Part shown: piece after piece, positions 3 through 31,536 of the stretch
Position numbering within the stretch: the stretch's first letter is position 1
Layout: the number at the start of each line of letters is the position of its first letter
IMG/VR virus record: IMGVR_UViG_3300017527_000247
Coordinates: 1-31,536 of that record
From: a virus
Reading direction: 5' to 3' (one strand)
Length of the DNA stretch: 31,536 nucleotides
The notes under the pieces: model-generated
What the model was told of the DNA's origin: nothing
The model's database searches: none
The model's input: only the letters and a program-made list of their open reading frames with translations
Position numbers and translations under genes: made by a program

Positions 3-827
3 ATGGGTAGACAAATGCCTTGGGATGCAATTCCAGACAGTAACGTGTTTCCTACGGGAAACTTTCATGTGACAGGTGTTAAGTTAGAGGAACGTTTTAG
101 CAACAATGGTAAGTTGATGTATTCCGCTGATATGCAAATCCTCGAACACCCCAACACAGGGATGTACACCAACATGCACCACTTTGAAAACTTTGTGATT
201 GGGTCGGATGAAGATTTGACGGCAGATGTGCCGGGTACGTGGCAGCAAAGCTTTGGGGCCAAAAGACTGAAACAGATGTTGAAGGCGGCTCAGGTCAGCG
301 AGCATGCCGACATGGATAAGATCTGCGCCGGTTTTAATGGGGTTCAGTTTATCTTGAGTCTGAGGTGGTTTCGTGAGCCTGAGCTGAACAAGGACGGCAC
401 GCCGAACCAGTACGCCGGTCAGGAGAGAAATGATGTGACGGGGTTTGCGAAGATCGGCGCGAAAGAGCCGATGATTGAGCCGCAGAAGGGTGCTGTTGGT
501 CCTGGTGCGAAGCCTGCGCCGGTTGCGCCGGTTGCTCCTCCGGTTAGTGGGCTACCCGTTGGCCCACCTGCGGTTGCACCACCTATAGCGCCGCCTCCGG
601 TCGGTGTGCCTGTTGCAGGGCCGCCACCCACCGCGCCGCCTACTGCTGTACCTCCGGTTGGACCGCCTGTTGTTAATGTTCCGCAGACTCCGACTCCTGC
701 GGTGACACCCGTTGCAGGCGGTGGTCAGATGCTTCCGTGTAACGTTTGTGGTCAGCAAGTACCTGCGGAGCAGTTTGCACAGCACATCGGTCAATGTATG
801 GCTAATCAGGCGAATAAGGTGGGTTAG
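3..827 (+). CDS. SSB-like phage protein (DUF669-type N-terminus) with Pro-rich linker and C-terminal UBZ4-like zinc finger
   Basis: The first ~150 residues read like phage single-stranded-DNA-binding proteins of the DUF669 type: a beta-rich start, a W-x-x-x-F-G-A-K-R-L-K-x-M-L-K-A-A segment near residue 85, and a Y-A-G-Q-E-R-N-D-V segment near 140 that matches the 'YNGQ-RN-V' closing motif of that family. Residues ~166-234 are a low-complexity Pro/Val/Ala linker. The end carries C246-x2-C249-x11-H261-x3-C265, the spacing of Rad18/UBZ4-type zinc fingers. The likely role is ssDNA binding in replication or recombination, with the finger as an interaction module; this is inferred. The ATG lies only two bases from the window edge, and an alternative ATG sits at 15, so the true start may be outside. 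It opens the + strand block. Confidence 0.55.
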   Translation: MGRQMPWDAIPDSNVFPTGNFHVTGVKLEERFSNNGKLMYSADMQILEHPNTGMYTNMHHFENFVIGSDEDLTADVPGTWQQSFGAKRLKQMLKAAQVSEHADMDKICAGFNGVQFILSLRWFREPELNKDGTPNQYAGQERNDVTGFAKIGAKEPMIEPQKGAVGPGAKPAPVAPVAPPVSGLPVGPPAVAPPIAPPPVGVPVAGPPPTAPPTAVPPVGPPVVNVPQTPTPAVTPVAGGGQMLPCNVCGQQVPAEQFAQHIGQCMANQANKVG

Positions 828-2104: not shown

Positions 2105-2287
2105 ATGGCCGAAGCTATAAACATAATAATTGACGAAACAGATCCCGAATACCCCGTGTTAGTTGAGATTGAGCTTGATAGCGGTAAGTCAATTTCGATT
2201 GGCAAGAGGTTTCAAGAAGACTTGGCTGACGAAGATTCAAACATTGTGGTACTTCGCATAACACCCGAAGACATCGAAGATGCCTAA
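2105..2287 (+). CDS. Hypothetical small acidic protein (60 aa)
   Basis: ATG 2105 sits directly after the preceding TGA (2101-2103), with AAAGAAAGGA just upstream inside the previous gene. The protein is short, acidic and predicted mostly beta (alternating I/V segments: N-I-I-I-D, V-L-V-E-I-E-L, N-I-V-V-L-R-I). Its last eight bases overlap the start of the polymerase gene. No family is recognised. Tight packing on both sides supports coding. Confidence 0.6.
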   Translation: MAEAINIIIDETDPEYPVLVEIELDSGKSISIGKRFQEDLADEDSNIVVLRITPEDIEDA

Positions 2288-4808
2288 CCTCGTCAAAGGA
2301 GAAGGGCCACTCGACGCACGCATTGTGCTGATAGGTGAAGCCCCCGGCCCCACCGAGAATGCTTTAGGCCGTCCTTTCATGGGTGCCAGCGGCAACATGC
2401 TTGGCGACTGGTGGCGTCCGCTTGGCCTGTCTCGCGGTCAGATCCGCATTGATAACCTTTTACAGCGTATGCCGCCGGGGAGTAAGATTGACAATGCATC
2501 GGTTGAAGAGGTTGTTGAAGCTATACAGCATTTACGACAGAGGATCACCGAGCTGCGTTACCCCTGCGTCATCGTACCCACGGGTAACTATGCTACCTTT
2601 GCTCTCACTGGCAAGGGAAAAGTCAAGGCAGCGATTCGTAAGGCTTTGGGTGAGGAAGTTACAAGCACTCAGGCGGAAAAGAAGGCAGGTATCTTATCGC
2701 TAAGGGGCAGCGTCTATCAATACACGGATCTCAGTGGGCGCAAGATGAAGCTCATCCCGACCGTACACCCTTCACGGTTTTTACACGGCAACCGACATAA
2801 GCAAGGAACGGCAATTGCAGATTGGAAACGTATCATTCGAGAAAGCGCATCCCCGGACTATCGGCCAGTTAATAGGACTCACGTTATTGAACCCACAGAA
2901 CATGAGGTCGCCAAATATGTTAAGTTTGTTAAATACTACGAGAAAGATATTAGATTGTCTTTGGATATTGAGACTTGGGGAGGAACGCTTACGTGCGTGG
3001 GATTCTCCCATAAATCTGATTACTCGATCACGATTGCGACCACTTCCAAGAGACAACGCGATACGTTTTTGCCTTATGTTAAGACGCTATGCGATACGCA
3101 GTGCGAAAAGATCCTACAAAACGGCCTCTATGACTACTACTGGCTCTCCCACTTCGGAATAAAGCCCGTCAACTGGAAGTGGGATACGATGGGTATGGCA
3201 CACGCAATCAATCCCATTGGGCAATTCACACTTGAGTTCCTGTGCTCAATCCACGTCGATGATTACCAGTACTGGAAAGACGAGGCTAAAGATGCTGAAG
3301 AGATTAAGAAGTATGCTCGTGACCTGCAATCGTTATGGGTCTACAACGGTCTCGATTGCTGCTATACCCACGAGTTACAGGAGCAACTCGCCATTCAGGT
3401 TCAAGAAGCTGGTCGAATGGAGTTTTACTTCCATCACTACCGGGATTTATTTATTCCGTTGCTCGGACTCATGCGGCATGGTGTTAAGGTTGATACTAAA
3501 GCGCAAGCTGCGTGGTGCAAAGAATTGATGCTAAACTGCTCAGCAATACGCGAAGAATTGACTCAGCTCGCTGGTGAGGATTTGTTCGCACAAAAGGATT
3601 TCTCCAATGTGAAGCTAAGGCGCTTCTTCTATGATAAACTCAAGATCCCAAAGAAGATGAAGATCACAAAGGGCGTGGGAGGTAAGAAGCGCACCGTCAC
3701 ACTGGACAAGCACGCATTAAATGAGTTCATCATGAAGTCGCATCAGCCTAAGCTTAAAAAGAAGTACGAACCGGCGCAGGCTCCTGCGATGCTGATCCTA
3801 AATTTTCGTCGCAGCAAAAAGAAAGCCGATACGATGAAAGGAGCGTGGGACAAAGATGGATATATTCGTTGCGAATACAAGTTTAAAACGGAGACTGGAA
3901 GGCTCGCCTCTGCTCGAAATCCCAAGCGCAAAGGTTACAACCTTCAGAATCCTTCGCGGAAAATTAGACATACATTTCTACCGGATAAAGGTTGCGTTTT
4001 TATCAAGATCGATCTTAGTCAGGTTGAGGATAGGGTCGTCAAGATGCTCACGGGAGCTGACCGCATGGTTAGGTTAGCCAATTTGCATCCGAGTGAGTTT
4101 AATGCGCACACGTATAATGCAGCTCGGATATTTGGGGTTTCCGAAGATGATGTAACTAAAGATCAGTATATGTTAGGTAAGAAGGCGGTGCATGGTGCGC
4201 AACGTGGTATGGGTGGTGTGTTGCTGAGCCAAGAGTTGCTGGCTGATGAAGATGCACCGCTTGTCATATCACCCGGCGAGTGCCAGAAGATGATTGATAA
4301 GTACCTTCAAGATCACCATGAGATCAGGGATATTTACTTTCCGGGGATACGAAAAGAGTTGTGGGATTATAAGTGTCTGACCAACACGTGGGGTAGGATC
4401 TGGAACGTTGGCGAGTATGTCGAGTGGGATGAGGATTTGTATCGCAGAGGATATAGTTTCAAGCCGCAGTCCGAGAATGCGGATCTGTTAAACCAGTGGG
4501 GATTGCTTGAGGCGTACCGTTTCATTAAAGCCAACCGGATGAAGACGCGGATCAACTTACAGATGCACGATGAGTTGATTGCAAGCTGCCCACTCAGTGA
4601 AGCGTATGATTACACTCAGTTCGTCGTCTACCACCTTGAACAGCCTCGTTGGTACTACGGTAATAAGCTGGCGGTGCCTGCTACGATAACGGTTGCAAAA
4701 GATTGGGCTGATGACAGGTACGAGTTTAAGCGGTTGCCTAACCAGAAGGACTTTGAACAGGTTGTGCAATGCGTTTTAGAGGAGATTGAGTATGACCAAC
4801 GGCAATAG
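2280..4808 (+). CDS. Fusion of family 4-like uracil-DNA glycosylase and family A DNA polymerase with 3'-5' exonuclease
   Basis: The product has 842 residues. The N-terminal ~190 residues look like a family 4 uracil-DNA glycosylase: G19-E-A-P-G23 with G-R-P-F-M-G following, an N-L-L-Q-R-M-P-P-G segment, and T161-V-H163-P-S165. The family's N-terminal iron-sulfur cysteines are absent. Next is a DnaQ-like exonuclease with D229-I-E231-T (Exo I), N281-x3-D285 (Exo II) and Y355-x3-D359 (Exo III). The polymerase domain has motif A at D578-L-S-Q-V-E, an O-helix region G633-K-K-A-V-H638-G-A-Q-R642-G-M-G, and motif C at H763-D764-E765. It should be the replicative polymerase, with the glycosylase domain either removing or sensing uracil in template. 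Similar glycosylase/polymerase fusions are known in phages such as SPO1. Its start overlaps the previous gene by eight bases. The O-helix Arg is unusual. Confidence 0.92.
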   Translation: MPNLVKGEGPLDARIVLIGEAPGPTENALGRPFMGASGNMLGDWWRPLGLSRGQIRIDNLLQRMPPGSKIDNASVEEVVEAIQHLRQRITELRYPCVIVPTGNYATFALTGKGKVKAAIRKALGEEVTSTQAEKKAGILSLRGSVYQYTDLSGRKMKLIPTVHPSRFLHGNRHKQGTAIADWKRIIRESASPDYRPVNRTHVIEPTEHEVAKYVKFVKYYEKDIRLSLDIETWGGTLTCVGFSHKSDYSITIATTSKRQRDTFLPYVKTLCDTQCEKILQNGLYDYYWLSHFGIKPVNWKWDTMGMAHAINPIGQFTLEFLCSIHVDDYQYWKDEAKDAEEIKKYARDLQSLWVYNGLDCCYTHELQEQLAIQVQEAGRMEFYFHHYRDLFIPLLGLMRHGVKVDTKAQAAWCKELMLNCSAIREELTQLAGEDLFAQKDFSNVKLRRFFYDKLKIPKKMKITKGVGGKKRTVTLDKHALNEFIMKSHQPKLKKKYEPAQAPAMLILNFRRSKKKADTMKGAWDKDGYIRCEYKFKTETGRLASARNPKRKGYNLQNPSRKIRHTFLPDKGCVFIKIDLSQVEDRVVKMLTGADRMVRLANLHPSEFNAHTYNAARIFGVSEDDVTKDQYMLGKKAVHGAQRGMGGVLLSQELLADEDAPLVISPGECQKMIDKYLQDHHEIRDIYFPGIRKELWDYKCLTNTWGRIWNVGEYVEWDEDLYRRGYSFKPQSENADLLNQWGLLEAYRFIKANRMKTRINLQMHDELIASCPLSEAYDYTQFVVYHLEQPRWYYGNKLAVPATITVAKDWADDRYEFKRLPNQKDFEQVVQCVLEEIEYDQRQ

Positions 4809-19962: not shown

Positions 19963-20358
19963 TTAGCCGTCTGTTGCAAGCAACGCTGTTAAAGCAACTA
20001 CGGTATCCGACCCTGCGCCAAACCAGTTTAAAAACTGTGTCCGGCTTTTTTTGCCTAGTCCAAGATCGACTTGACCACAAGATAAAATAATCTTTGTGCC
20101 CTCCTTTTGAGCGGCAGTCAAAGCGTTATATTCAGTCGCATCTATGCACTCTAAGACTGCGTAAGCCTGGAATACATCGGGCTTAGCAGCCGCAGAATCA
20201 GCAAAATGTAGATGACCTCTTATGAAGTGACCCGTTGCGTTGCACTCAGGGCAAGGTACAATCACCGGCTCTGAAGGCGGCGTAGAGACTTGGTAATTTC
20301 CCGTGCCTCTGCACCGCCAACAATCTGCGTGATACTCAAACAAAGTGTCAATACTCAT
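19963..20358 (-). CDS. DnaJ-type zinc finger fused to a small phage head-neighbour domain (131 aa)
   Basis: The first 45 residues hold two C-x-x-C-x-G-x-G-like knuckles, C13-W-R-C16-R-G-T-G and C36-P-E-C39-N-A-T-G, the arrangement that binds zinc in DnaJ. Residues ~65-131 (Y-A-V-L-E-C-I-D-A-T-E-Y-N-A-L-T-A-A-Q-K ... I-I-L-S-C-G-Q-V-D-L ... T-V-V-A-L-T-A-L-L) match a small domain commonly encoded next to capsid genes in tailed phages ('EYNALTAAQK...L.G.VNL'). The fusion is unusual. It may help capsid folding or head completion; this is inferred. AGGAGG precedes ATG 20358. Confidence 0.6.
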   Translation of the reverse strand: MSIDTLFEYHADCWRCRGTGNYQVSTPPSEPVIVPCPECNATGHFIRGHLHFADSAAAKPDVFQAYAVLECIDATEYNALTAAQKEGTKIILSCGQVDLGLGKKSRTQFLNWFGAGSDTVVALTALLATDG

Positions 20359-21361: not shown

Positions 21362-22261
21362 TTAGCCGGTACTGCCATCAACCCCACGCCAAGTTGCATA
21401 ACCTTTCGTGTGACGTTGATAGACTGTGGCAATCGCGTTCTTTGTCCACGGATCATCGAACATATCGAAGATCGGATGATCTCTCCACAGAAAGTTTACG
21501 TCGTGCTGACCCTTCGCAGCGCACAGATACCAGTAAGTTGAAGTGGTCAAGTAGTGAACTACCATCCACGTCATGTCCTCTTCGATCAGTGCGTTGACCT
21601 CGTTGTCGGTTGTGTAAGCCTTCTGCGGACTTCCTAAGATCTCACGTGCCACGAACTTATTCTCAGGTGCGATAAGGATCTGTGAAGGAGTCATCAAGCG
21701 TGGTAAGTCGCGCTCATCGGTCATGTTCTCAAAACGAGTTATGCTGTTTTGCAACCCGGTTTGAGAGAAGCTTATGTCCGGTGAGGGACGGTTCGCACGG
21801 CTGGTGCCGTCAAGACCTGTATGCGCTGTTGAGCACAGTGACTCACTGGCGGTGAAGCCTGTGTAAGAAGTGCTAAAGCCATTGTTCATAACTGACCAAG
21901 CATCGACTTCCTGCCGGTTGCGGGATGAACGGGCAAGCTCGCGAACCATTTCACGCATAATGCCGTAAAGTTCGTCTCGCCACGCTTCCCAAGTTATTTC
22001 CACAGCCATACCGAACGGCGCTGCGGTGTAAGTCTTGGTGCTTCCCATCAGGATGTCGTCCGTTGTGAATTGCTCACCTTGATCCTTGCCGGGTAGCGTA
22101 CCAAGTCCCGAAACCTGCTGATCGGTCAGCGGGTTCCATTCCATGTCTTCAACGTTAAAGAACAGCGGGAACTCTAAAGGACGTTCCTTGCCGGTCTCAA
22201 CGTAGACCCTTCTTAAATCAGGAGCGAGAAGCTCTGATATTGCTCCAGTGTTTGTAGGCAT
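21362..22261 (-). CDS. Major capsid protein candidate (HK97-type, gpT-like)
   Basis: This 299-residue protein has an E-F-P-L-F-F-N-V-E-D-M-E-W start, an F-T-T-D-D-I-L-M-G-S-T-K-T-Y segment resembling the E-loop/P-domain of Mu gpT-like capsids, a helix rich in R/E/M (W-R-D-E-L-Y-G-I-M-R-E-M-V-R-E-L-A-R, ~95-112) as the spine helix, and L-M-T-P-S-Q-I-L-I-A-P near residue 190, the strand typical of HK97-fold capsids. It sits after the decoration candidate and scaffold genes. The leader before ATG 22261 carries CAGGAGG. No other protein here fits the capsid better. Confidence 0.75.
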   Translation of the reverse strand: MPTNTGAISELLAPDLRRVYVETGKERPLEFPLFFNVEDMEWNPLTDQQVSGLGTLPGKDQGEQFTTDDILMGSTKTYTAAPFGMAVEITWEAWRDELYGIMREMVRELARSSRNRQEVDAWSVMNNGFSTSYTGFTASESLCSTAHTGLDGTSRANRPSPDISFSQTGLQNSITRFENMTDERDLPRLMTPSQILIAPENKFVAREILGSPQKAYTTDNEVNALIEEDMTWMVVHYLTTSTYWYLCAAKGQHDVNFLWRDHPIFDMFDDPWTKNAIATVYQRHTKGYATWRGVDGSTG

Positions 22262-22313: not shown

Positions 22314-22847
22314 TTATACTTCTACATCTATTTGACGCCAAGATGCGTTAACCACAAAACCAACCTGACCACCGGACGTTCCGATGGCATCGATTAGTTC
22401 AACAACCGTAACACAGTCAGCACTGGATGCCGGACTCATATCAACACCGTAATGCGTGTCGCCGGACAGTTTAGCAAGTCCAGCTTTAGCTCCAAGATGC
22501 GTTGCTTGAACCAACGTTACCAAAGCGCCGGTGCTGTTATCAATCAACTGACCCTTAAATATCATGCCAGGTAAGGCAGGCGTCACGCCGACTTTACTGG
22601 TGTTGGATGCGCTGCCAGCTCCGTCTTCCTGTAGAAACCCTAAGAGATAGTCTCCACTGGCAGCAGGTTTAACTTGGTCAGCCGAACTCACAGAAGCGGT
22701 GTCACACACATTGATATATCCACTTGTGATTTGAACCGGCGCTCCCTTTACTGCCGCTAACGAAGCAGCTTGCGCTATTTGTAAAGTAGGGGTTGAAGAC
22801 AAACCCAAGCGCCTGTGAGGTTCAATCCTTTTTGTTACTGTAGCCAT
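22314..22847 (-). CDS. Putative capsid decoration/stabilisation protein (177 aa)
   Basis: This Ala/Ser/Gly/Val-rich protein is beta-rich, with G-A-P-V-Q-I, Y-L-L-G-F-L-Q-E-D-G-A-G and P-G-M-I-F-K-G-Q-L segments and a final strand W-R-Q-I-D-V-E-V. This layout is common in head-decoration proteins encoded directly before the major capsid gene. Its start overlaps the stop of the Cys-motif gene by one base (TAATG), preceded by AAGGAGAAAA. It has no catalytic motif. A minor capsid role is inferred from position and composition. Confidence 0.55.
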   Translation of the reverse strand: MATVTKRIEPHRRLGLSSTPTLQIAQAASLAAVKGAPVQITSGYINVCDTASVSSADQVKPAASGDYLLGFLQEDGAGSASNTSKVGVTPALPGMIFKGQLIDNSTGALVTLVQATHLGAKAGLAKLSGDTHYGVDMSPASSADCVTVVELIDAIGTSGGQVGFVVNASWRQIDVEV

Positions 22848-23713
22848 TATTTTTTCTCCTTCTTTGATTTAGCTTTCCGCTTTTCTCCCTTCTGCTCAGA
22901 TGTAAGATCACCTCCTTTGGTTACTGTTGTTTGTAAGTCTTTTGCAGTGTATTTACGTGATATGACGTTGAATGTATCTTTTCCCATCATATCAACTGCC
23001 GTATGATCGCCAATTGAATTAGCATATCTTAACCACTTATCCAAAGTTTTATCTTTCAACCAAGCTGGCTGTGTATCAACGGTATTTGGGCAGTGTAAGA
23101 TGTCTTCAAGCTTGCGTATAAGATCAATCTCATCAACGGTTTGCGGTGCATCCCACCACTCACTATCACCAGGAATTGCTTGCTCAAACTCAGTACAGGA
23201 ACGTTTAAGAAATACAGTGTCTTGTAGGTGTTGCCCATCAATCTCATCGTTTGGCAGATATTCCGTGATCATGTGAAGCATAATTTCTTTAACCTGCAAT
23301 CCCTCAGCCAAGCTGTGCGTATATTGAAACACGGCATACGGTTTATCAGTGTAATCTCTAACGTCAAGACCAGCTTTACCGGGTATCGGGTTGACGAAGT
23401 TATAAACGAACGGCACTACATACATTAAGTTATTTACTTGGATAAGCTCCTTGACGTTGCGTGGCTTAGTAACAACTTTCCAACAATTGTAACGGCAAAA
23501 GCTATGGATTACACCGAATTGTTTAAAAAGTATCGCGTGCCATAAAGAGCAATTTCGGCAATCCTTTGATCCGCTGACGTGTATCCAATAAGGCGCAGTC
23601 AACAAAGCTGTTCGAACTTCAAGCATACCATCTTTAGGTATCAAAATTCCCCTTGCTATAAGCTCATCAATCTTTTTCGATATTACATCATCGAACCAGT
23701 GCTCATACCACAT
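22847..23713 (-). CDS. Cys-motif protein, copy B (288 aa), unknown function
   Basis: No named family was recognised. It shares with the protein at 29167-29931 a conserved core: C55-[SA]-[LF]-W-x-A, C73-R-x-N-C77-W-K-x-V-x-K-P-R-N-V-x-E-L, a [LM]D-x-R-x-Y segment at ~116-121, and L-K-R-x-C173-T-E. It also shares a C-terminal region with W-L-K and I-G-D-x-T-A (~218-239). Four shared cysteines in the order C-x17-C-x3-C...C suggest a zinc or iron-sulfur site. The last ~20 residues are a Lys/Glu-rich tail. It lies between the 234-residue gene and the decoration gene, with one-base overlaps at both ends, so it is produced with the head genes. Confidence 0.7.
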   Translation of the reverse strand: MWYEHWFDDVISKKIDELIARGILIPKDGMLEVRTALLTAPYWIHVSGSKDCRNCSLWHAILFKQFGVIHSFCRYNCWKVVTKPRNVKELIQVNNLMYVVPFVYNFVNPIPGKAGLDVRDYTDKPYAVFQYTHSLAEGLQVKEIMLHMITEYLPNDEIDGQHLQDTVFLKRSCTEFEQAIPGDSEWWDAPQTVDEIDLIRKLEDILHCPNTVDTQPAWLKDKTLDKWLRYANSIGDHTAVDMMGKDTFNVISRKYTAKDLQTTVTKGGDLTSEQKGEKRKAKSKKEKK

Positions 23714-24417
23714 CAGCCACCTGCCTTTCCCGGCGGAGGCATATAAGGCACGGTTCCGTTTCTAAGCATTGTGTCTACGCCCTTTGAAGCTGTCTGGATA
23801 GCACCTTGATTCTTGGCACTGCCTTCCATAACATCCATCAAGTTTTTACCTTGACGACCGAAGTTGACCTGAGATGCGTCGGCATGAACTTTAATGCCTT
23901 TGCCTTGGTAGCGTTCCCCAAGTTCTACGAGGCCGCTGCCGACACCTTCTTCACGTGCTCGGCGCTTGCGCTCTTCCATTGCATCGATGGCAAGTGCGCG
24001 TTGCTCAGATATACTCATTAAAATAGTGTCACCAATGACACGGTATCCACGAGCGTCTTTTAGTTCGGGGCATTCGGGATCGGCTGATTGCACAACGGTC
24101 CAACCGAGGCGGCGCTTTTTAACGATCTCGCGACCGCGTTGGCCTTCGTAGCACCAACAGTAGCGAAGACCGGATTGAGCGTTATCGACGTGCAGTTCGT
24201 CCAGTAATGATAGAATCTCGTTGTCAAGGTCTATCGTCGCCGGATCAAAGCCGTAGCGCTCCTGTTCCTCTGACGCTTCTTCGGCTGCTTGTTCGAGGGC
24301 GTCCGTGCGCTCAGCGAGTTGCTCGTCTCGCTTCCAACCAGCATTTTCAAGACCCGGATCAATGGCGTCGGCGTCTTCCGTGTTTATCACTTTAATAGGC
24401 TCTTTTCCTTTAGGCAT
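23713..24417 (-). CDS. Hypothetical head-module protein (234 aa)
   Basis: ATG 24417 is chosen over ATG 24435 because GAGGAGGGGG lies directly before it. Residues 1-70 are acidic and helical. Residues ~80-135 form a compact domain with Y-C-W-C-Y-E, a basic K-K-R-R-L-G-W-T-V-V-Q and A-R-G-Y-R-V-I-G-D-T-I-L-M-S-I. A helical Arg/Glu region and a Gly/Met/Pro-rich tail follow. Similar layouts occur in uncharacterised proteins in podovirus head operons. Position after the scaffold candidate suggests a minor head component, which is inference. Confidence 0.5.
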   Translation of the reverse strand: MPKGKEPIKVINTEDADAIDPGLENAGWKRDEQLAERTDALEQAAEEASEEQERYGFDPATIDLDNEILSLLDELHVDNAQSGLRYCWCYEGQRGREIVKKRRLGWTVVQSADPECPELKDARGYRVIGDTILMSISEQRALAIDAMEERKRRAREEGVGSGLVELGERYQGKGIKVHADASQVNFGRQGKNLMDVMEGSAKNQGAIQTASKGVDTMLRNGTVPYMPPPGKAGG

Positions 24418-25288
24418 TCTCCCCCTCCTCTTCATTTAGATACTCTTTGTTCTTCTCGTAGTAATCCTCCCATCCACCTTCGTAGCCGAGACTGCGATAA
24501 TAGTTGTCAGGTGTGCGATGACGTGAACCTTTGATGGATCGCATGGCTTCTGTTGATAGGATCTGGTTTGGCGCGGGTATGCCACCGTTTGGTGCTCGTT
24601 GCTCTTGGCGGCCTGATGCAGCTCCTGCGAGTGGATCTTGTGTAGCTTCATCCTGCTCACGCAGCCATTCCTGCTTTTTGACCTCTTCAAGCACGACTTG
24701 GTTCTCACCGACAGCGAGGTTGTAAGCACCCATCTTCGCTTCAGGGTTCATGCGTTGGTCAACCGGAAGCTGGTTTGAATAATACTCGTAACGGTCTTTG
24801 ACCTCCTTGATATTTAAGTAAGGCATATCAGATGATACAACCTTTGAAGCTATCGCGTCAATAGTTGCCATTCCAGCATCAATACGGGGATCTGTCTGAC
24901 CGGCCATCATTTGCCCCTGAAGTTCGCCGCGCTCAAGCATAAGCTTGTTCTGATCGGCCAGGATGGTTCCGAGTTTTCCTTGGTATTGAGCGTCATCAGC
25001 TTTCTTGGTTAGATCGGCAAGAGCTGTATCTATTTGTGCGATGCGTGCCTTTTGATCTTTGTGAGGATCTTCAGGCGGTGCCACGGGGGTTGCCGGTTGC
25101 CTGTATGTGTTGTCGCTCATAACTTTGATGCTCTCAGCCATCGTTCCAATTGACGCTTGCAATGTGTTAAATTGCTCCGTTGTCACGTAAGTTTGCTCCG
25201 GCGGTGTTGTGACTGCGCCATCGACAGGCGGATCGCTTGCCGGTGGAGCCTGCGCCGGTTCATCTGGTTTGCTCTTGAATAAAGGCAT
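24410..25288 (-). CDS. Putative scaffolding protein (292 aa)
   Basis: The start is ATG 25288, with GAGAGGAGG just upstream; the in-frame ATG 25309 lies farther back and is not needed. The protein has a Pro/Ala-rich N-terminus (~5-35), a long highly charged helical stretch (~70-170: A-L-A-D-L-T-K-K-A-D-D-A, L-G-T-I-L-A-D-Q-N-K-L-M-L-E-R-G-E-L-Q), and a Lys/Glu-containing acidic C-terminal tail. Composition, size and position between portal and capsid genes match podovirus scaffolds. It overlaps the next gene by eight bases. No protease domain is visible. Confidence 0.6.
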   Translation of the reverse strand: MPLFKSKPDEPAQAPPASDPPVDGAVTTPPEQTYVTTEQFNTLQASIGTMAESIKVMSDNTYRQPATPVAPPEDPHKDQKARIAQIDTALADLTKKADDAQYQGKLGTILADQNKLMLERGELQGQMMAGQTDPRIDAGMATIDAIASKVVSSDMPYLNIKEVKDRYEYYSNQLPVDQRMNPEAKMGAYNLAVGENQVVLEEVKKQEWLREQDEATQDPLAGAASGRQEQRAPNGGIPAPNQILSTEAMRSIKGSRHRTPDNYYRSLGYEGGWEDYYEKNKEYLNEEEGENA

Positions 25289-25508
25289 TTTGTTCCTCCT
25301 CTCTCTCATAAGTTAAAATCGTGTTGCGCATGTTGCTGTATGCGTTTGATGCGCCTGCTGCTACCCTAGCTTCGTCTGACTTTCCTTCTGAAAGCTTATC
25401 ACGCATCTTGGAAAGCTCCTCACTCTCCCACCTGTTTAAGCACTCGAAGAATGATTGAAGCGAAGCCGTGTCTGTCACTAATCTCTCAATCCATGCTGGT
25501 TTATCCAC
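25260..25508 (-). CDS. Small helical protein after the portal gene (82 aa)
   Basis: ATG 25508 overlaps the portal stop by eight bases. The protein is acidic and helical, starting M-D-K-P-A-W-I-E-R-L-V, with S-F-F-E-C-L-N-R-W-E-S-E-E-L and an A-G-A-S-N-A-Y segment. Small proteins of this type commonly follow portal genes, but no function is assigned. Its 3' end overlaps the scaffold gene start by 29 bases. Confidence 0.55.
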   Translation of the reverse strand: MDKPAWIERLVTDTASLQSFFECLNRWESEELSKMRDKLSEGKSDEARVAAGASNAYSNMRNTILTYEREEEQNAFIQEQTR

Positions 25509-27414
25509 CCTGTCCTCCCATCACTCCTGGCGGTCCTGCCGCTGGTTGTTGTATCCCTCCGTTGGGCGCTGCACCGCCACCACCTGCGGTGGGCATGTTG
25601 CCCATCAATTGTAAGACTGCTTGGCGTGGCCGGTCAGCCGTAGCAGCGTCTATTGCCTCTTCAACTTCAACTAAAAATATGTTCGGGTCGCGGACCTGAT
25701 CAAAGGTTCTGAGTGTGCGTTCTATGATTTCGCCAGCAGCTTCAGCGATCCGTTTTGCCACGTCCGCGACCGAAGGTGGTGTCTGTGGGTTTGCTGCTAT
25801 CGTTACAAGCTCAAGTGTTCGTGTGTAATACTGAGATAAGATGCCTACGAGTTGGAAGGTAGCCTGTCGTTCGGCTTCCTTATTGACCGAAGGCGATGCG
25901 GCGGTTAACTCGACTTGTATACCCTCATCGAAGTTTTCTTTTCGCAGCATGTTTATTACACGCAAGCCGTCTTCAACACCGAGGATTTGAGAGATATGCA
26001 CGAAGACTTTCTTCTTACCTGCAAGGACTTTTTCCTGATAGCGATACAATGCTTGGCGGACAGCGCGTGCGAAGGCATTTCGCATACCACCGAAAGCCGG
26101 TGCGAAGCGCTTATTTGATTGCGCCATCATTGATATGGCCGTGATGCCTGGTGTGCGACTGCCCATCTGACCTCCACCGGACGGCATCGACATTTCATTG
26201 ACTCCTACGCGGCGCTCGGCAAGCTGTGTTACCATCAATTGCGCATTCCACAGTGAGGGGTAGACTTCACCCATCTGCTCGGCTACAAGATCTTCTTTTG
26301 GGTTGGACAGCTCAACGACTTTATTTGGGAATAGTGTCATGTTCGCCGGTATGCGTCCCGTTGCGCCCTTCCAGATGCGGCTGTTGGCAAGAAGGATATT
26401 GAGAGTGCCGTAGTTATGAATGTCAGTGAGTTCCTTCTCGTAAGGCATAATCATTTCAAGCACGCCCATTCCGTTGAACAGGTGCGGTCGGCGCTGGTAT
26501 ACCATCTTTTCGATTGGGCGGCGGTCGTAGGGGTTGTATCCGACGTGCAGGATGTTGCGTGAGGTGCGGTCCCATACGACATAGAGATCTTCGTCCAGCC
26601 CATCCTCGTCGATGTCGAAGTAACAATAGATGTCGAAGATTTCGTAAAGGTTGCCCTTGCGCTCCATACCCGTCATCTGCCGTCCAAGGATTTCGCGGCG
26701 GGTGCGCACCCAATCTTTTGTGCCTGCTGGGTTTATGCCCAATGTGTTCCAACCATTTCTCCTTGAGATTGCTTCTATTTCCTGTGCTGTGTACCAGAAA
26801 CGAAGGCCGATCCAAAGAGCCTCATCGGGGTCATCTACGCTACCACCAGGTGCGAAGGTGTCTTCAGGTGGGTGGCAACGGATGCGTGGGTGGGCTGCGA
26901 GGACTTTAGCTACCTTAGTTTTCTTGCGACGCTCGGTCCAAGGAATGTAGAATACACCTGTACCGAGTTGCACGTTATCAATGATGCATTCATCCCCGCT
27001 GTCTTTGATGCCAAGTTCGTTTTCGGTTATAAAGTTTACGAAGCGTTGCAGTGCTTTTACCGAAGCGGCGTATTCCTTGTCGTTCTTGCGCTTTGGCATA
27101 CCGCGCACGGTTACAAACGGTTCGACGCCGAAAAGGGTATCGTAGGCTTGCGCGTAGATGGCATCTGCTGAAATTGCGCCGAGAGTTACTTCGATGTTCG
27201 GTGCATTTTCAATCGGGAAGTTCTTGACAGGGTTTTTCGATACGCCGTCGTACATACGCATTAGCTCACGCCACAAGACTTCAAGCGGGTGGCGCGTTGA
27301 TAAGGCGTCTTCGAGTTCGACTGTGATAAAAGACTTCAGTGCGTTGACACGCTCTTCACCAAAGGAGAGGCGTGCGTCGCGTCGGTTGCTGTGTATGTCT
27401 ATGTACTTAGGCAT
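25501..27414 (-). CDS. Portal (head-tail connector) protein (637 aa)
   Basis: The sequence has hallmarks of podovirus portals: an N-terminal helical region with I-E-N-A-P-N-I-E-V-T-L (~68-78), a G-T-G-V-F-Y-I-P-W segment near 152-160, H-P-P-E-D-T-F near 182, a beta stretch with I-F-D-I-Y-C-Y-F-D-I-D-E-D-G, N-G-M-G-V-L-E-M-I-M-P near 315-325, and a long helical C-terminal part ending in a Gly/Pro/Gln-rich tail. Twelve such subunits would form the DNA-passage ring. The start is ATG 27414 with AAAGGTAAAAG before it, identical to the leader of the beta-helix gene upstream. No terminase lies directly upstream, which is unusual. Confidence 0.8.
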   Translation of the reverse strand: MPKYIDIHSNRRDARLSFGEERVNALKSFITVELEDALSTRHPLEVLWRELMRMYDGVSKNPVKNFPIENAPNIEVTLGAISADAIYAQAYDTLFGVEPFVTVRGMPKRKNDKEYAASVKALQRFVNFITENELGIKDSGDECIIDNVQLGTGVFYIPWTERRKKTKVAKVLAAHPRIRCHPPEDTFAPGGSVDDPDEALWIGLRFWYTAQEIEAISRRNGWNTLGINPAGTKDWVRTRREILGRQMTGMERKGNLYEIFDIYCYFDIDEDGLDEDLYVVWDRTSRNILHVGYNPYDRRPIEKMVYQRRPHLFNGMGVLEMIMPYEKELTDIHNYGTLNILLANSRIWKGATGRIPANMTLFPNKVVELSNPKEDLVAEQMGEVYPSLWNAQLMVTQLAERRVGVNEMSMPSGGGQMGSRTPGITAISMMAQSNKRFAPAFGGMRNAFARAVRQALYRYQEKVLAGKKKVFVHISQILGVEDGLRVINMLRKENFDEGIQVELTAASPSVNKEAERQATFQLVGILSQYYTRTLELVTIAANPQTPPSVADVAKRIAEAAGEIIERTLRTFDQVRDPNIFLVEVEEAIDAATADRPRQAVLQLMGNMPTAGGGGAAPNGGIQQPAAGPPGVMGGQGG

Positions 27415-27425
27415 CTTTTACCTTT
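27412..27425. repeat. 14-bp direct repeat, left copy (at portal start)
   Basis: CATCTTTTACCTTT. On the - strand it is the ribosome binding site plus start codon of the portal gene, AAAGGTAAAAGATG. An identical copy lies at 29161-29174. Confidence 0.8.
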
Positions 27426-29163
27426 AAGTTATATTAATTCCAATACCGATCCCACACAAACCACGGGCCTCAGCGAAAACATAAGCACCTATTTCCCATC
27501 CTGCTCCATAGTCATCTTGATCTAATGTTGCTACGTTGTCAGGCCAAGAAGAACTGGGATTTAAGGCGTCTGTGTAGTCGTCACCCAAATCTATGCCTAC
27601 ATTAATCGCAGGTGAGCTGCCTTGTAATGTAAAATCCTCCGATGCTGGATTGGTAAATAAAGGATCTCCGGTTATATTACCGGATACTGTGTCTCCATTG
27701 TTGCCATTCTCGGCGTTAAACTCCGTGACAGTGAGATCAGCTCCCCTATATCTAACAAAATCTGTTACACCGGATTTATAAAATAAATTGTTTCTATATA
27801 TATTGCCGCCTGCCCCGGCTGCTATCTCTACAGCGTAATTATCATCTCCATCGTAGCTGTCTTCACCACAGTTCATGAAGATGTTATTTGTAACCTCATT
27901 ATTTGCAATCGCTGCTTGAGCGCTCACATAAATACCAGATTCGGGACTACCATAAAATACATTATCATAGATTTTATTATGATGCGATTCCGTGCTAAGA
28001 AAAGTAAGGGATAAATGATAACTGTAACCACTATGATCATACGGCGGAGAAATCATTTGCCCAAAAACATTATTAAAAACTTCATTGTAACTACCACTTA
28101 AATTTATCTTTGTCTTCATGTCGGTTACAAAGTTTCGATAAAACTTGTTATTTATGCAGGTTGAAGCAGCACTGCTTCCAAATGCAAGGGCTTTCGGGTC
28201 ACCCATTCCCGACCCTGCACCTGGGGCATCGATTAAATTTTCATAAATTTCATTATTTTGATTTACCCTACTGGAAATGCCATTCAACCTTACAGCATTA
28301 TGCGCCCAATCCCGTATGGTGTTGTTGTACACTTTCCAACCTTGGGAACCTTCATCCAATTGTACCCCAACAGCATTTCTTTCTCCATTATAATCAAGCG
28401 TTAAATGATCGTTATTGTCTATCGTACAATTTTTGATTTCTCCGTTAAGTATATCATAAGCATCATCCCATGTTTTGATTTGGATACCTACTTGACCAGA
28501 ATCTTCAACGCGACAATCATCAAATATTATCCCTTCAGAATCTTCAGAAGCAGAAGATGTCTGCACCAAAAGAGTATATAAACCACCCTTAAACGTTATC
28601 CCCTCAAACGTCAAAAAGGATTTGTTATTCACCCGCAACGCACTTGCAAACGCACCCCCGTAATTAGCCGCATCCATTGTCGAGTAATTATCAGCAGGGT
28701 TAGACGTTGAGTATACATAAACCCTGTCGTTGGGATTATCCCACCACCAGCGATATGAGGAGTCTATATCATTTTCATCTTGCGCCTCACTATATTCTGT
28801 ACCATCAATCCAGAGTCTGCCGGGGTCACTTGCAAGGCTACCAATATACCAGACATCTCCTCCCCCATCCGTCCAATTACCCGCCGTATCCCACTCTCTG
28901 AGATCAGTAACCATATTAATTGTCGGCGCATCTCCACTTTCAGCTTCATAGGTAATCGGGTTACCAGAAGTCCCTGAAGACGGTGGGTCCAACCTGGTTG
29001 TATAATCTCCACCGTCATCACATAAAATTATTATATCACCAGCACTAAAAGTTTCCGCATCGTGTACGGCTATATTCATGCAGTTGGCTTGCGTGCTTCC
29101 CGGCCCCGTTGCTGCTCCTTTATTCGCTGCTGTGCCATCGACTCTCATGTAGTAAGTAGCCAT
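27424..29163 (-). CDS. Right-handed beta-helix spike, putative polysaccharide-binding or -cleaving protein (579 aa)
   Basis: The first ~120 residues (T-Y-Y-M-R-V-D-G, G-D-I-I-I-L-C-D-D-G-G, N-P-I-T-Y-E-A) and the following turns are typical of pectate-lyase-like beta-helices. From ~180 to 520 there are repeated N-N-x-I / F-E-G-I-T-F / I-Y-D-N-V-F-Y / V-T-N-N-I-F coil turns of 20-25 residues. It ends A-L-N-P-S-S-S-W-P ... G-A-G-W-E-I-G-A-Y, the closing motif of that fold. A tailspike or depolymerase is the usual role in phages. Catalytic residues cannot be assigned by eye. It is encoded just before the portal and is bounded by an exact 14-bp repeat. Confidence 0.7.
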   Translation of the reverse strand: MATYYMRVDGTAANKGAATGPGSTQANCMNIAVHDAETFSAGDIIILCDDGGDYTTRLDPPSSGTSGNPITYEAESGDAPTINMVTDLREWDTAGNWTDGGGDVWYIGSLASDPGRLWIDGTEYSEAQDENDIDSSYRWWWDNPNDRVYVYSTSNPADNYSTMDAANYGGAFASALRVNNKSFLTFEGITFKGGLYTLLVQTSSASEDSEGIIFDDCRVEDSGQVGIQIKTWDDAYDILNGEIKNCTIDNNDHLTLDYNGERNAVGVQLDEGSQGWKVYNNTIRDWAHNAVRLNGISSRVNQNNEIYENLIDAPGAGSGMGDPKALAFGSSAASTCINNKFYRNFVTDMKTKINLSGSYNEVFNNVFGQMISPPYDHSGYSYHLSLTFLSTESHHNKIYDNVFYGSPESGIYVSAQAAIANNEVTNNIFMNCGEDSYDGDDNYAVEIAAGAGGNIYRNNLFYKSGVTDFVRYRGADLTVTEFNAENGNNGDTVSGNITGDPLFTNPASEDFTLQGSSPAINVGIDLGDDYTDALNPSSSWPDNVATLDQDDYGAGWEIGAYVFAEARGLCGIGIGINIT

Positions 29164-29174
29164 CTTTTACCTTT
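29161..29174. repeat. 14-bp direct repeat, right copy (at beta-helix gene start)
   Basis: CATCTTTTACCTTT, identical to 27412-27425. It contains the start codon and ribosome binding site of the beta-helix gene and the last codons of the Cys-motif gene. Confidence 0.8.
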
Positions 29175-29931
29175 TTACCTCATGATAAGTGACGCTGTTC
29201 ACTACAAGCTTTTCCCATATACCGGGATCACCGCTGTAGCGTTCAGCGGCTTCGCGAGCGGTGGGGTCGCCTATTTCGATTGCACGCTTAATCCAACGCT
29301 CTTTGATTTCAGTCTTTAACCATTTAGCCTGAAAACCATGCAGCTCCGTGAAGTCGAAAAGATCGCACAGGCGGCGTTCCAAATCAAGTTCACGCTTGGT
29401 TATCTCGTCCCACTGATCAGAGGGTTTTATGCGTTCCATCTCGGTGCAGCCGCGCTTTAGAATGATTGGAATGCGCTTGGGCCTTACAGCATTTTTTAAC
29501 ATGGTATAGTACTTGCGCCCTTCTTCCAACGTGTCAGCGTACACGAAACCGGCCCAGGCACCATAAGAGTAGTTTCGCAAATCCATTCCGATCTTTGATG
29601 GAAGGTCGAGATTTCTCATCGTGTCGTATGTCTCAAATAGCTCAAGCACGTTCCTTGGTTTGATCACAGTTTTCCAACAGTTCGTCCGGCAGTTTGTTGG
29701 GATCAGGCTAAAGCGCATTGTGCATACCGCATTCCAAAAAGCACAAAACTTTTTGCGCACGTCGAAGTTGATAAAAATCCACGGTATGTTGCGTGCGCCC
29801 TGCGGGTCTTTTGGGATCAATTTGCCAATTGTGCCGATCTTGTACTCATTTTTCAGTAAATCGTTAAGGCATTGACTGAAACTGTGAGTTACACTTGTGT
29901 TAAGTTTGTCGAACGGTAATTTTCTATACAT
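29167..29931 (-). CDS. Cys-motif protein, copy A (254 aa), unknown function
   Basis: This is the paralogue of the 22847-23713 protein. Shared features are C63-x-x-W, C81-R-x-N-C85-W-K-x-V-x-K-P-R-N-V-x-E-L, M-D-L-R-N-Y (~116-121), L-K-R-G-C162-T-E and a closing W-L-K / I-G-D-P-T-A region (~204-225). An extra cysteine at 70 is not shared. The end (Y-S-G-D-P-G-I-W-E-K-L) differs from copy B's Lys-rich tail. The four shared cysteines suggest a metal or cluster site. A purine-rich leader with AAAGAGGAAA precedes ATG 29931. It is encoded directly upstream of the beta-helix spike. No enzyme family was recognised. Confidence 0.7.
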   Translation of the reverse strand: MYRKLPFDKLNTSVTHSFSQCLNDLLKNEYKIGTIGKLIPKDPQGARNIPWIFINFDVRKKFCAFWNAVCTMRFSLIPTNCRTNCWKTVIKPRNVLELFETYDTMRNLDLPSKIGMDLRNYSYGAWAGFVYADTLEEGRKYYTMLKNAVRPKRIPIILKRGCTEMERIKPSDQWDEITKRELDLERRLCDLFDFTELHGFQAKWLKTEIKERWIKRAIEIGDPTAREAAERYSGDPGIWEKLVVNSVTYHEVKR

Positions 29932-29958: not shown

Positions 29959-30411
29959 TTATGCAACAGTGAAAATTCCGCTGCTGGCACTAAATTGCAG
30001 CGTTAAGCTACCACTCACGTTATTTTTGTTCGCAGCAAGATCAGCGTAGCAGATAAGCGGTGAACTGGCATCTGCGCCCGGATCTTCCGCTATGACAGCG
30101 TAGCGAGCGTCGCTGAAACCGGACGAATGCTGTGAATAAGCTGACGGATCATTTGCGTCAACGGTCACAGTCCCCGATGATAAAGTAACTGTTACGCTGG
30201 CAAGAGTTTTACGTGCGTAGTTTGATCCAGTGACTTCAGTTGAACCTGCGATAGCGTCTGCGATGTCTTGATCAGTTGCTTTCGCCGGAGCGTTTGAGGA
30301 GTCAACCAAGAGAAGCACTATAGTATCCCCGTTAAAATCAATGAAGGCATTTGGCTGCGAAGAACCATCGAGCTGTCCCTGCAAAAATTTATCATACATT
30401 ACCCAAGCCAT
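29959..30411 (-). CDS. Conserved phage structural-type protein (150 aa)
   Basis: The order M-A-W-V-M-Y-D-K-F-L-Q-G-Q-L-D-G, D-F-N-G-D-T-I-V-L-L-L-V, G-S-N-Y-A-R-K-T-L, then D-A-R-Y-A-V-I-A-E-D-P-G-A-D-A-S-S-P-L-I, and G-I-F-T at the end follows a widespread phage family of ~150-residue beta-rich proteins ('YxxFK..LLDG.IDLDTDTI.VALL', 'ARYAVIY...SPLIAYIDFG', 'GIFTL'). That family lies in structural modules and its function is not established. The start overlaps the preceding stop by one base, with AAGGAGG upstream. Confidence 0.6.
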   Translation of the reverse strand: MAWVMYDKFLQGQLDGSSQPNAFIDFNGDTIVLLLVDSSNAPAKATDQDIADAIAGSTEVTGSNYARKTLASVTVTLSSGTVTVDANDPSAYSQHSSGFSDARYAVIAEDPGADASSPLICYADLAANKNNVSGSLTLQFSASSGIFTVA

Positions 30412-30692: not shown

Positions 30693-31536
30693 TTAGTCTA
30701 TGCTTATGTTTATACCAAGTTTATATAAACCACGCCTCACAACAGCAGCCCCGGCTTCAAGTACGGTTAAGGCTTTACCGACGTAGGTTATCGTTCCATT
30801 TGCGATGTTCTGTGTTACGTCGAAAACGGTGTTCAGTGCTTTGCCGGTGTATGTGATCGTGGCGTCTGCTATCAACACAACAATGTTTAGAAAAACTCCA
30901 AGTGTTTTACCCGTATAGGTTACAGCCGCATTTGCTATTTTAACAACCTCGTCAAAGCGTATGCCCAAAGTTTTACCTGCGTAAGTTATCGCTGCCCTCG
31001 TTATTTCAATCACCTCTGCCCCACCAATCACGAGAGTTTTGCCGGTGTAAGTTACTGTCGCCCGGACAATGGAGACTATTTCATCAAATACGATGTTTAG
31101 TGTCTGTCCAGTGTAAGCAACTGCGGCATTGGCTATCGTAACCATCTCATCGAATATTATGCCGAGGGTCTTGCCGGTGTACGTTACGGCTGCATTAGCG
31201 ATGCCAACAACTATCGCTAAAAAGTCCGCAAGCGCTCTACCTGTGTATGTGATCGCTGCGTTGCTAATCGCGACGATTTCGTCGAATACGATGCCAAGTG
31301 TTTGCCCTGTGTACGTTACCGAGGCGTTGCCAATCGGGACGGCTTCATCGAATACGACGGTAAGAGCGCTTCCTGTGTAAGTTATTGAAGCGTTTCCAGG
31401 TGTCTCCGTAACGCCAGCGGCTGTGTACTCATCAGCACCAGGATCAGGAGTAGAAGCATCCCGGCTATCTCCATCAATATCATCTGTGATGTTAGGATTG
31501 CCGTTTGTATCCAGTGACGGCCAACCAGCCTCTGAA
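30693..31536 (-). CDS. C-terminal part of a beta-helix-type protein with ten 22-residue tandem repeats (runs off the right edge)
   Basis: The frame is open from the stop at 30693 to the window end, so the start is outside; the internal ATG at 31145 is inside a repeat and is not a true start. The first ~40 visible residues (W-P-S-L-D-T-N-G-N-P ... D-I-D-G-D-S-R-D-A-S-T-P-D-P-G-A-D-E-Y) match the closing motif of pectate-lyase-like beta-helix proteins ('DIDG..R......DIGADEY'). Ten repeats follow (30738-31397), and then a ~15-residue end. It is probably a surface-exposed fibre or spike that uses the repeats as a stalk or adhesive tip. The function is inferred. Confidence 0.65.
   Translation of the reverse strand, partial: SEAGWPSLDTNGNPNITDDIDGDSRDASTPDPGADEYTAAGVTETPGNASITYTGSALTVVFDEAVPIGNASVTYTGQTLGIVFDEIVAISNAAITYTGRALADFLAIVVGIANAAVTYTGKTLGIIFDEMVTIANAAVAYTGQTLNIVFDEIVSIVRATVTYTGKTLVIGGAEVIEITRAAITYAGKTLGIRFDEVVKIANAAVTYTGKTLGVFLNIVVLIADATITYTGKALNTVFDVTQNIANGTITYVGKALTVLEAGAAVVRRGLYKLGINISID
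30738..31397 (-). repeat. Ten tandem 66-bp (22-residue) coding repeats
   Basis: The consensus per unit is [AG]-N-A-x-[IV]-T-Y-T-G-[KQ]-[TA]-L followed by about ten residues, often V-F-D-E-x-V-x-I. On the - strand unit 1 starts at 31397 and unit 10 ends at 30738, each exactly 66 bp. T-Y-T/A/V-G is kept in nearly all units (Y at the seventh place in all ten). Nucleotide sequences differ between units, so the protein pattern is selected rather than freshly duplicated. Confidence 0.85.

What the first reader, a model, noticed from the sequence alone, without database searches (positions are those of the whole stretch)
22847..29931. Duplicated four-cysteine protein family inside the structural operon
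Two genes (22847-23713 and 29167-29931), ~5 kb apart in the same operon, share C-x17-C-x3-C-W-K-x-V-x-K-P-R-N-V-x-E-L and a later L-K-R-x-C-T-E, plus a common C-terminal region. Four cysteines are conserved although the rest has diverged widely. That pattern suggests a zinc or iron-sulfur site, in a place where only head and tail proteins are expected. I know no named family for it. The two copies have different tails (Lys-rich in one), which hints at separate partners.
Basis: partly seen in the sequence, partly recalled or inferred. Interest (0 to 1): 0.65.

Follow-up and report, generated by a model that had tools for sequence, protein, structure and literature searches.

The report
Unnamed four-cysteine protein beside phage capsids
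A previously unnamed family of four-cysteine proteins sits beside the capsid genes of many uncultured phages and also turns up in bacterial clusters that make modified peptides, which suggests an enzyme that chemically alters proteins rather than an ordinary shell component.

Summary
In detail: the two minus-strand genes are paralogs (32% identity, E 3e-31), and their four cysteines are not a two-sequence coincidence. In 82 distinct homologs the cysteines are conserved 82, 81, 82 and 82 times, along with three lysines, a KR-x-CTE motif and a tyrosine. The family is in no library searched (Pfam, PHROGs, NCBIfam, PDB, 50,697 cultured phages), yet at least 136 IMG/VR stretches encode it. Of 113 distinct proteins, 94 lie on DNA that also carries a major capsid gene, from six capsid families. 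One copy is usual. The window's two genes belong to two old clades with different fixed positions, not a recent duplication. Three bacterial homologs lie in lasso-peptide-type clusters with kinase, sulfotransferase and 2OG-oxygenase genes. Two AlphaFold models of 25%-identical members weakly match the fold shared by eIF4E and the phospho-Ser/Thr lyases (BLES03, LanKC, LanY), and the invariant K, K, Y, K fall on the strands that carry the lyase active site. My best reading is a metal-site, protein-modifying enzyme, perhaps a beta-eliminating lyase, acting on late virion proteins. No phage kinase was found and profile alignment does not support lyase homology, so chemistry and substrate are inferred.

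The parts
22847..23713 (-). P0001: capsid-slot copy of the four-cysteine family, 288 aa, Lys-rich tail
   Evidence: tree clade of 9 capsid-adjacent members
23444..23551 (-). P0001 motif C55-x17-C73-x3-C77-W-K79...L90
   Evidence: sequence; conservation
23189..23209 (-). P0001 motif L169-K170-R-S-C173-T-E175
   Evidence: sequence; K170, C173, T174, E175 82/82
29167..29931 (-). P0002: second-clade copy, 254 aa, next to a PHROG 644 gene and upstream of the portal gene
   Evidence: tree clade of 5 members away from the capsid gene
29638..29745 (-). P0002 motif C63-x17-C81-x3-C85-W-K87...L98
   Evidence: sequence; conservation
29440..29460 (-). P0002 motif L158-K159-R-G-C162-T-E164
   Evidence: sequence; conservation
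21362..22261 (-). major capsid protein (context)
   Evidence: PHROG 4523 / 133 / 371, E 4e-7 to 1e-4
22314..22847 (-). small protein between P0001 and the capsid gene, probably decoration (by position)
   Evidence: conserved cluster c16 in 7 loci; role inferred
23713..24435 (-). conserved late protein of unknown role, abuts P0001
   Evidence: cluster c15 in 7 loci; no Pfam
24410..25309 (-). scaffold-like protein (by position)
   Evidence: cluster c14; role inferred
25501..27414 (-). portal protein (context)
   Evidence: PHROG 332 / 1216
27424..29163 (-). beta-helix tail-spike-like protein between P0002 and the portal gene (context)
   Evidence: PF13229 Beta_helix E 2e-11
29959..30411 (-). PHROG 644 protein, neighbour of P0002-type genes
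   Evidence: E 1.5e-14; recurrent neighbour

Best explanation
The two genes belong to an unnamed family of phage late proteins with a Cys4 metal site built onto a beta-alpha-beta-beta-alpha-beta core like that of the eIF4E / phosphothreonine-lyase fold group. The most likely role is enzymatic: the metal site (zinc or iron-sulfur) holds together a pocket of invariant Lys (K87, K113, K159 in P0002), Tyr (Y131), near-invariant Arg (R119) and acidic residues that acts on side chains of ribosomally made proteins. On the lyase model, K113 would take the alpha-proton, K87 would stabilise the enolate and K159 would protonate the leaving group, giving dehydroalanine or dehydrobutyrine from an activated (phospho or similar) Ser/Thr. 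In bacteria the substrate would be a lasso-type peptide activated by the neighbouring HPr-kinase-like enzyme. In phages it would be a capsid, decoration or tail protein. SHOWN: the family, the invariance, the capsid linkage, the lasso-type linkage, confident models. INFERRED: metal binding, enzymatic role, lyase chemistry, virion substrate.
For: Invariant Cys4 plus K79, K113, G115, K170, T174, E175 (82/82, P0001 numbering) and Y131, R119, R171 (80/82) at about 25-30% overall identity: the pattern of a functional site, not of a shell protein. Parity along the strands puts K87, K113, Y131 and K159 (P0002) on one sheet face (model; inference). Three bacterial homologs form one clade (SH-aLRT 99, quick tree) and sit in lasso-type clusters: Thalassobaculum plasmid with lasso PqqD, B2 transglutaminase-like, Asn synthase, two sulfotransferase-like, two HPr-kinase-like and a 2OG-oxygenase-like gene; two Acidobacteria with the gene overlapping a 2OG-Fe(II) oxygenase gene, then HPr-kinase-like, sulfotransferase and Asn synthase. 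HPr kinase homologs phosphorylate Ser of lasso precursors (PMC8498205). Structure: models of P0002 and of a 25%-identical bacterial homolog both match eIF4E (Z 6.4 / 7.5), ThurKC lyase domain (5.6 / 6.0), LxmKY chain B (5.0 / 6.0) and 1ztp = BLES03 (5.0 / 5.1). PMC4159009 joins SpvC-like lyases, BLES03 and eIF4E in one fold. BLES03 residues K128, K159, R169, Y175, K204 compare with K87, K113, R119, Y131, K159: same residue types and order, spacings 31/10/6/29 against 26/6/12/28. ThurKC K65, K94, Y122, D152 lie in the same order.
Against: All Z-scores are below 8, where common arrangements also score; no Foldseek hit reaches E 1e-3. Profile-profile comparison with LanKC lyase domains gives probability 1.5-8% and an alignment that does not pair the catalytic residues. 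No Pfam model matches even weakly in more than one member. No protein kinase in 34 phage contigs and no HPr-kinase-like gene near the phage copies, so the phage enzyme would need host phosphorylation or a different activated group. R119 is missing in the lasso-cluster homologs, and the lyase histidine (ThurKC H67) has no counterpart. Always lying among structural genes also suits a structural role.
Confidence: 0.35

Rival explanations
1. A zinc-stabilised head-assembly or minor virion protein: the Cys4 site is structural and the conserved basic residues bind a capsid partner or DNA. It would be a head-completion factor or chaperone made beside the capsid gene.
For: 94 of 113 family members lie on DNA with a capsid gene, all on the same strand; 66 lie within 1.5 kb downstream of it and 9 one gene upstream. 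Six capsid families are involved. Usually one copy per contig.
Against: Homologs in lasso-type clusters, where there is no virion. Strict conservation of Lys, Tyr, Thr, Glu across partners from six capsid families. The P0002 clade sits away from the capsid gene, next to tail/lysis/packaging genes. No match to any PHROG head or connector family.
Confidence: 0.3
2. A nucleic-acid- or nucleotide-binding late regulator: the basic sheet face binds RNA, DNA or a nucleotide, as eIF4E binds caps and the E2/LANA domains bind DNA with a similar sheet.
For: The best structural scores are to eIF4E (Z 6.4 and 7.5), and LANA/E2 DNA-binding domains recur.
Against: These are generic matches below Z 8. A regulator gives no reason for the close capsid-gene linkage or for a place in lasso-type clusters among tailoring genes.
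Confidence: 0.15
3. A protein-modifying metalloenzyme of another chemistry, for example an Fe-S- or zinc-dependent transferase or a redox partner of the 2OG oxygenase, with no relation to phospholyases.
For: Gene overlap with the 2OG-Fe(II) oxygenase in Acidobacteria and a 2OG-like gene in the Thalassobaculum cluster. In some phages the next gene encodes a CxxCxxCC (PF03692) protein.
Against: No 2OG oxygenase (PF13640) in 44 phage contigs. No sequence or clear fold match to any known enzyme of such kind.
Confidence: 0.15

Closest known systems
Phospho-Ser/Thr lyases of the OspF/SpvC, LanKC/LanL, LanY and BLES03 group (PMC4159009, PMC10604976, PMC9486802)
   Same: Weak but repeated fold match (LanKC and LanY lyases, BLES03, eIF4E); order Lys, Lys, (Arg), Tyr, Lys/Asp on four strands; presence in RiPP-type clusters beside kinases.
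   Different: Added invariant Cys4 site; no catalytic His; no detectable sequence relation; phage copies have no partner kinase on the contigs searched.
eIF4E
   Same: Best-scoring solved fold for both models (Z 6.4 and 7.5).
   Different: No sequence relation; prokaryotic viruses; invariant Lys/Tyr/Cys set unlike the Trp cap pocket (from general knowledge, not tested).
Lasso-peptide tailoring enzymes (HPr-kinase-like kinase, 2OG hydroxylase, sulfotransferase; PMC8498205)
   Same: Three cellular homologs sit among such genes.
   Different: This protein is not one of the tailoring enzymes named in that review's passages read here; most members are in phages.
CxxCxxCC proteins (PF03692)
   Same: Small Cys-rich, putatively metal-binding proteins, encoded next to the family in several phages.
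   Different: Different Cys pattern and separate family; neighbours, not relatives.

Membership tests
Phospho-Ser/Thr lyase fold group | Common alpha/beta fold | tested here: inconclusive
   ThurKC lyase Z 5.6/6.0 (108-109 residues, 3.6-3.9 A), LxmKY chain B Z 5.0/6.0, BLES03 Z 5.0/5.1; eIF4E higher; all under 8
Phospho-Ser/Thr lyase fold group | General-base Lys and partner Tyr on neighbouring strands (SpvC K136/Y158, CaoY K219/Y236) | tested here: inconclusive
   K113 82/82 and Y131 80/82 (2 Phe) on strands 2 and 3, 18 apart (17 in CaoY, 16 in BLES03); equivalence rests on strand order, coordinates not available
Phospho-Ser/Thr lyase fold group | Acid catalyst: His (OspF, LanKC) or Lys (proposed for BLES03) | tested here: inconclusive
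   No invariant His in the family; invariant K159 at the BLES03 K204 position by strand order
Phospho-Ser/Thr lyase fold group | Sequence-profile relation to LanKC lyase domains (not required between branches of the group: PMC4159009) | tested here: not met
   hhalign probability 1.5-8%, residues not paired
Phospho-Ser/Thr lyase fold group | Partner kinase | tested here: inconclusive
   HPr-kinase-like gene beside all three bacterial homologs; none found in phage contigs
Phospho-Ser/Thr lyase fold group | Beta-elimination activity | not testable with these tools
   needs protein
Cys4 metal-binding protein (Zn or Fe-S) | Four conserved cysteines | tested here: met
   82, 81, 82, 82 of 82
Cys4 metal-binding protein (Zn or Fe-S) | Cysteines converge in space | tested here: inconclusive
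   Strand order places C85 and C162 side by side and C81 next to them; distances not available
Lasso-peptide tailoring gene (bacterial members only) | Location with lasso B1/B2/C genes | tested here: met
   Thalassobaculum plasmid: PqqD, B2, Asn synthase. Acidobacteria: Asn synthase and tailoring genes, B1/B2 not identified among the main ORFs inspected in 20 kb. Phage members: no such genes seen
Known phage structural families | Match to a PHROG or Pfam head, tail or connector model | tested here: not met
   76 members scanned; PHROGs: two single weak hits to families without a function name; Pfam: none at E 0.01

The most novel reading that the evidence does not exclude
A large, uncultured part of the tailed phages encodes a metal-site beta-eliminating enzyme beside the capsid gene. 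It would install dehydroalanine/dehydrobutyrine in virion proteins, allowing covalent (lanthionine or lysinoalanine-type) cross-links of the shell, a chemistry not described for phage capsids in the papers searched here and shared by descent with a lasso-peptide tailoring enzyme.
Probability: 0.1. Interest if true: 0.95.

Novelty: new variant of a known kind. Interest (0 to 1): 0.62.

Why it matters
A family found in at least 136 stretches of metagenomic viral contigs and absent from 50,697 cultured phage records is a blind spot of phage annotation. It goes with the capsid gene across six capsid families, so it probably does something general for heads. Its homologs in peptide-modification clusters give a concrete, testable guess: post-translational chemistry on virion proteins. 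If the lyase reading holds, it adds a metal-containing branch to the phospholyase group, and lasso-type clusters with this gene may make dehydrated peptides.

Tried and rejected
Recent tandem duplication: rejected, the two copies fall in separate clades with fixed positions; relatives keep only one or the other (L098 has only the P0002 type and an empty capsid slot; L122 shows the P0001 type, one copy in its 51.7 kb contig). Two copies as the rule: rejected, 40 of 43 contigs have one. Known family by sequence: none in Pfam, PHROGs, NCBIfam or PDB. Cultured phages: no tblastn match with five different queries. 2OG oxygenase partner in phages: none by PF13640 in 44 contigs. Kinase partner in phages: none. 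Profile homology to LanKC lyase: not supported. BLES03 profile comparison: no member found to compare with (uninformative). More bacterial members: sampling about 400 Acidobacteriota and 300 Bacteroidota genomes gave only those already known. Viral structure library: no match under E 1e-3. The Bacteroidetes MAG hit L092 is a 3.3 kb contig whose protein groups with a viral-contig member, so it is probably a phage contig. The careful tree search did not finish; the quick tree is used. Literature: no paper found on phage eliminylation or dehydroalanine in phage capsids.
Full report
WHAT IS THERE. The window is a 31.5 kb virus record (G000). Its late genes lie on the minus strand. In transcription order: a repeat protein (30693-31145), a small ORF, a PHROG 644 protein (29959-30411), P0002 (29167-29931), a beta-helix tail-spike-like protein, the portal, a small ORF, a scaffold-like protein, a conserved unknown (23713-24435), P0001 (22847-23713), a decoration-like protein, and the major capsid protein (21362-22261). 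P0001 shares its first and last bases with its neighbours' ends, so it is tightly packed in the operon.

OBSERVATION. The two proteins are paralogs: 32% identity over 218 positions, E 3e-31.

FAMILY. Single-sequence searches found only near relatives. A six-sequence alignment found 95 viral stretches and 3 bacterial-genome contigs; the 76-sequence alignment A2 found 136 viral stretches with one motif. In 82 distinct homologs the columns C55, C73, C77, C173 (P0001 numbers) are Cys in 82, 81, 82 and 82. K79, K113, G115, K170, T174 and E175 are invariant; R119, R171 and Y131 are 80/82. Spacing is C-x16..29-C-x2/3-C-x75..104-C; CxxC is commoner than the window's CxxxC. No member has a curated family: PHROGs gives two single weak hits, Pfam and NCBIfam none, PDB none. 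No match in 50,697 phage records with five queries.

COPY NUMBER AND POSITION. Of 43 contigs, 40 have one copy and 3 have two; the window also has two. On the tree the P0002 group (5 members, SH-aLRT 99) lies away from the capsid gene, usually after a PHROG 644 gene and before packaging or portal genes. The P0001 group (9 members, 99) is always one gene from the capsid gene. L098 carries the same kind of portal/scaffold/capsid cassette as the window with only the P0002 type and nothing in the P0001 slot; L122 is the reverse. G003 and G010 pair a P0002-type copy with a capsid-side copy from another branch. So the window's pair is two old lineages kept together. This tree is the quick one; the careful search did not finish.

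CAPSID LINKAGE. Of 113 distinct proteins, 94 are on DNA that also holds a capsid gene from one of six families (PHROG 9953/14242, 334, 10, 1357, 212, and the window's 4523-like). All 94 are on the same strand as it; 66 are within 1.5 kb downstream of it and 9 are one gene upstream. Loci were fetched around the gene, so same-strand placement is partly expected in a late operon; the short distance across different capsid families is the informative part.

BACTERIAL HOMOLOGS. Three form one clade. In a Thalassobaculum plasmid the gene (WP_322335124.1) is beside genes for a lasso PqqD chaperone, a lasso B2 protein, an Asn synthase, two sulfotransferase-like, two HPr-kinase-like and one 2OG-oxygenase-like protein. 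In two Acidobacteria it overlaps a 2OG-Fe(II) oxygenase gene, followed by HPr-kinase-like, sulfotransferase and Asn synthase genes. Such kinases phosphorylate Ser of lasso precursors, and 2OG hydroxylases act on lasso precursors (PMC8498205).

STRUCTURE. AlphaFold2 gave confident models for P0002 (pLDDT 90.7, pTM 0.85) and for the 25%-identical Acidobacteria protein (83.4, 0.79), with the same order of elements, a beta-alpha-beta-beta-alpha-beta core. Foldseek gives nothing below E 1e-3. VIA-align ranks for both models eIF4E, ThurKC's lyase domain, LxmKY chain B and 1ztp (BLES03) among other ferredoxin-like sheets. PMC4159009 reports that SpvC-like phosphothreonine lyases, BLES03 and eIF4E share one fold, with DALI Z of only 5.6-5.8 from SpvC to the other two, so Z 5-7.5 here is in the range of accepted members but also of chance matches. 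The active sites described are ThurKC K65, H67, K94, K117, D152, R163 (PMC10604976), CaoY R187, K219, R229, Y236 (PMC9486802) and BLES03 K128, K159, R169, Y175, K204. The family's K87, K113, R119, Y131, K159 (P0002) follow the same order, one on each of the four strands plus the Arg after strand 2. Strand parity puts the Lys and Tyr on one face. Profile alignment did not reproduce it.

METAL SITE. C81 and C85 precede strand 1, C162 follows strand 4, C63 starts the helix before. Strands 1 and 4 are neighbours in this topology, so the set can meet at one end of the sheet, next to K87 and K159. That is inference; Zn and Fe-S cannot be told apart here.

MECHANISM. Conserved reactive residues, a likely metal site, and two unrelated contexts that both centre on a ribosomally made product (a peptide in bacteria, virion proteins in phages) point to protein modification. 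Elimination of an activated Ser/Thr side chain is the most specific version. Against it: no kinase in the phage contigs, no conserved His, no sequence relation. I give protein modification with this fold 0.35 and a structural role 0.3.

VERDICT. The exact chemistry is open.

Noticed in passing
window 2280-4808 (+): DNA polymerase A gene with an N-terminal uracil-DNA-glycosylase-like domain (PF03167, E 8e-20) and a 3'-5' exonuclease domain in one ORF.
   Followed up: partly
L029, L043, L045, L048, L058, L070, L072, L073 (gene after the family member), also L138: A CxxCxxCC (PF03692) protein gene follows the family gene in phages that mostly have the PHROG 334 capsid; a second small, probably metal-binding neighbour.
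   Followed up: partly
L024:7193-7441, L027:6654-7151, L032:7016-7267, L036:1279-1773: Short zinc-ribbon-like proteins (CxxC...CxxC-type), some with a long C-terminal extension, lie just after the family gene.
   Followed up: no
window 19963-20358 (-): 131-aa late protein with CxxCxGxG-like repeats (weak DnaJ zinc-domain / Anti-TRAP match).
   Followed up: no
window 30693-31145 (-) and cluster c25: Protein made of repeats like 'VTYTGKTL' that recurs upstream of P0002-type copies; length varies widely (about 110 to over 500 aa).
   Followed up: no
window 3-827 (+): Replication-region protein with a Pro-rich linker and a C-terminal CxxC...HxxxC zinc-finger-like motif (weak Sgf11 match).
   Followed up: no
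L164:1177-2829 and L165:1327-2733: Acidobacteria proteins with a LanKC-type lyase plus kinase region (profile positions 41-431 and 41-423) in ORFs of 551 and 469 aa, apparently without the cyclase domain.
   Followed up: no
L021 and L023; L048 and L049; L051 and L052: Family proteins with the same length and score on contigs from different samples, so near-identical phages recur; not examined further.
   Followed up: no
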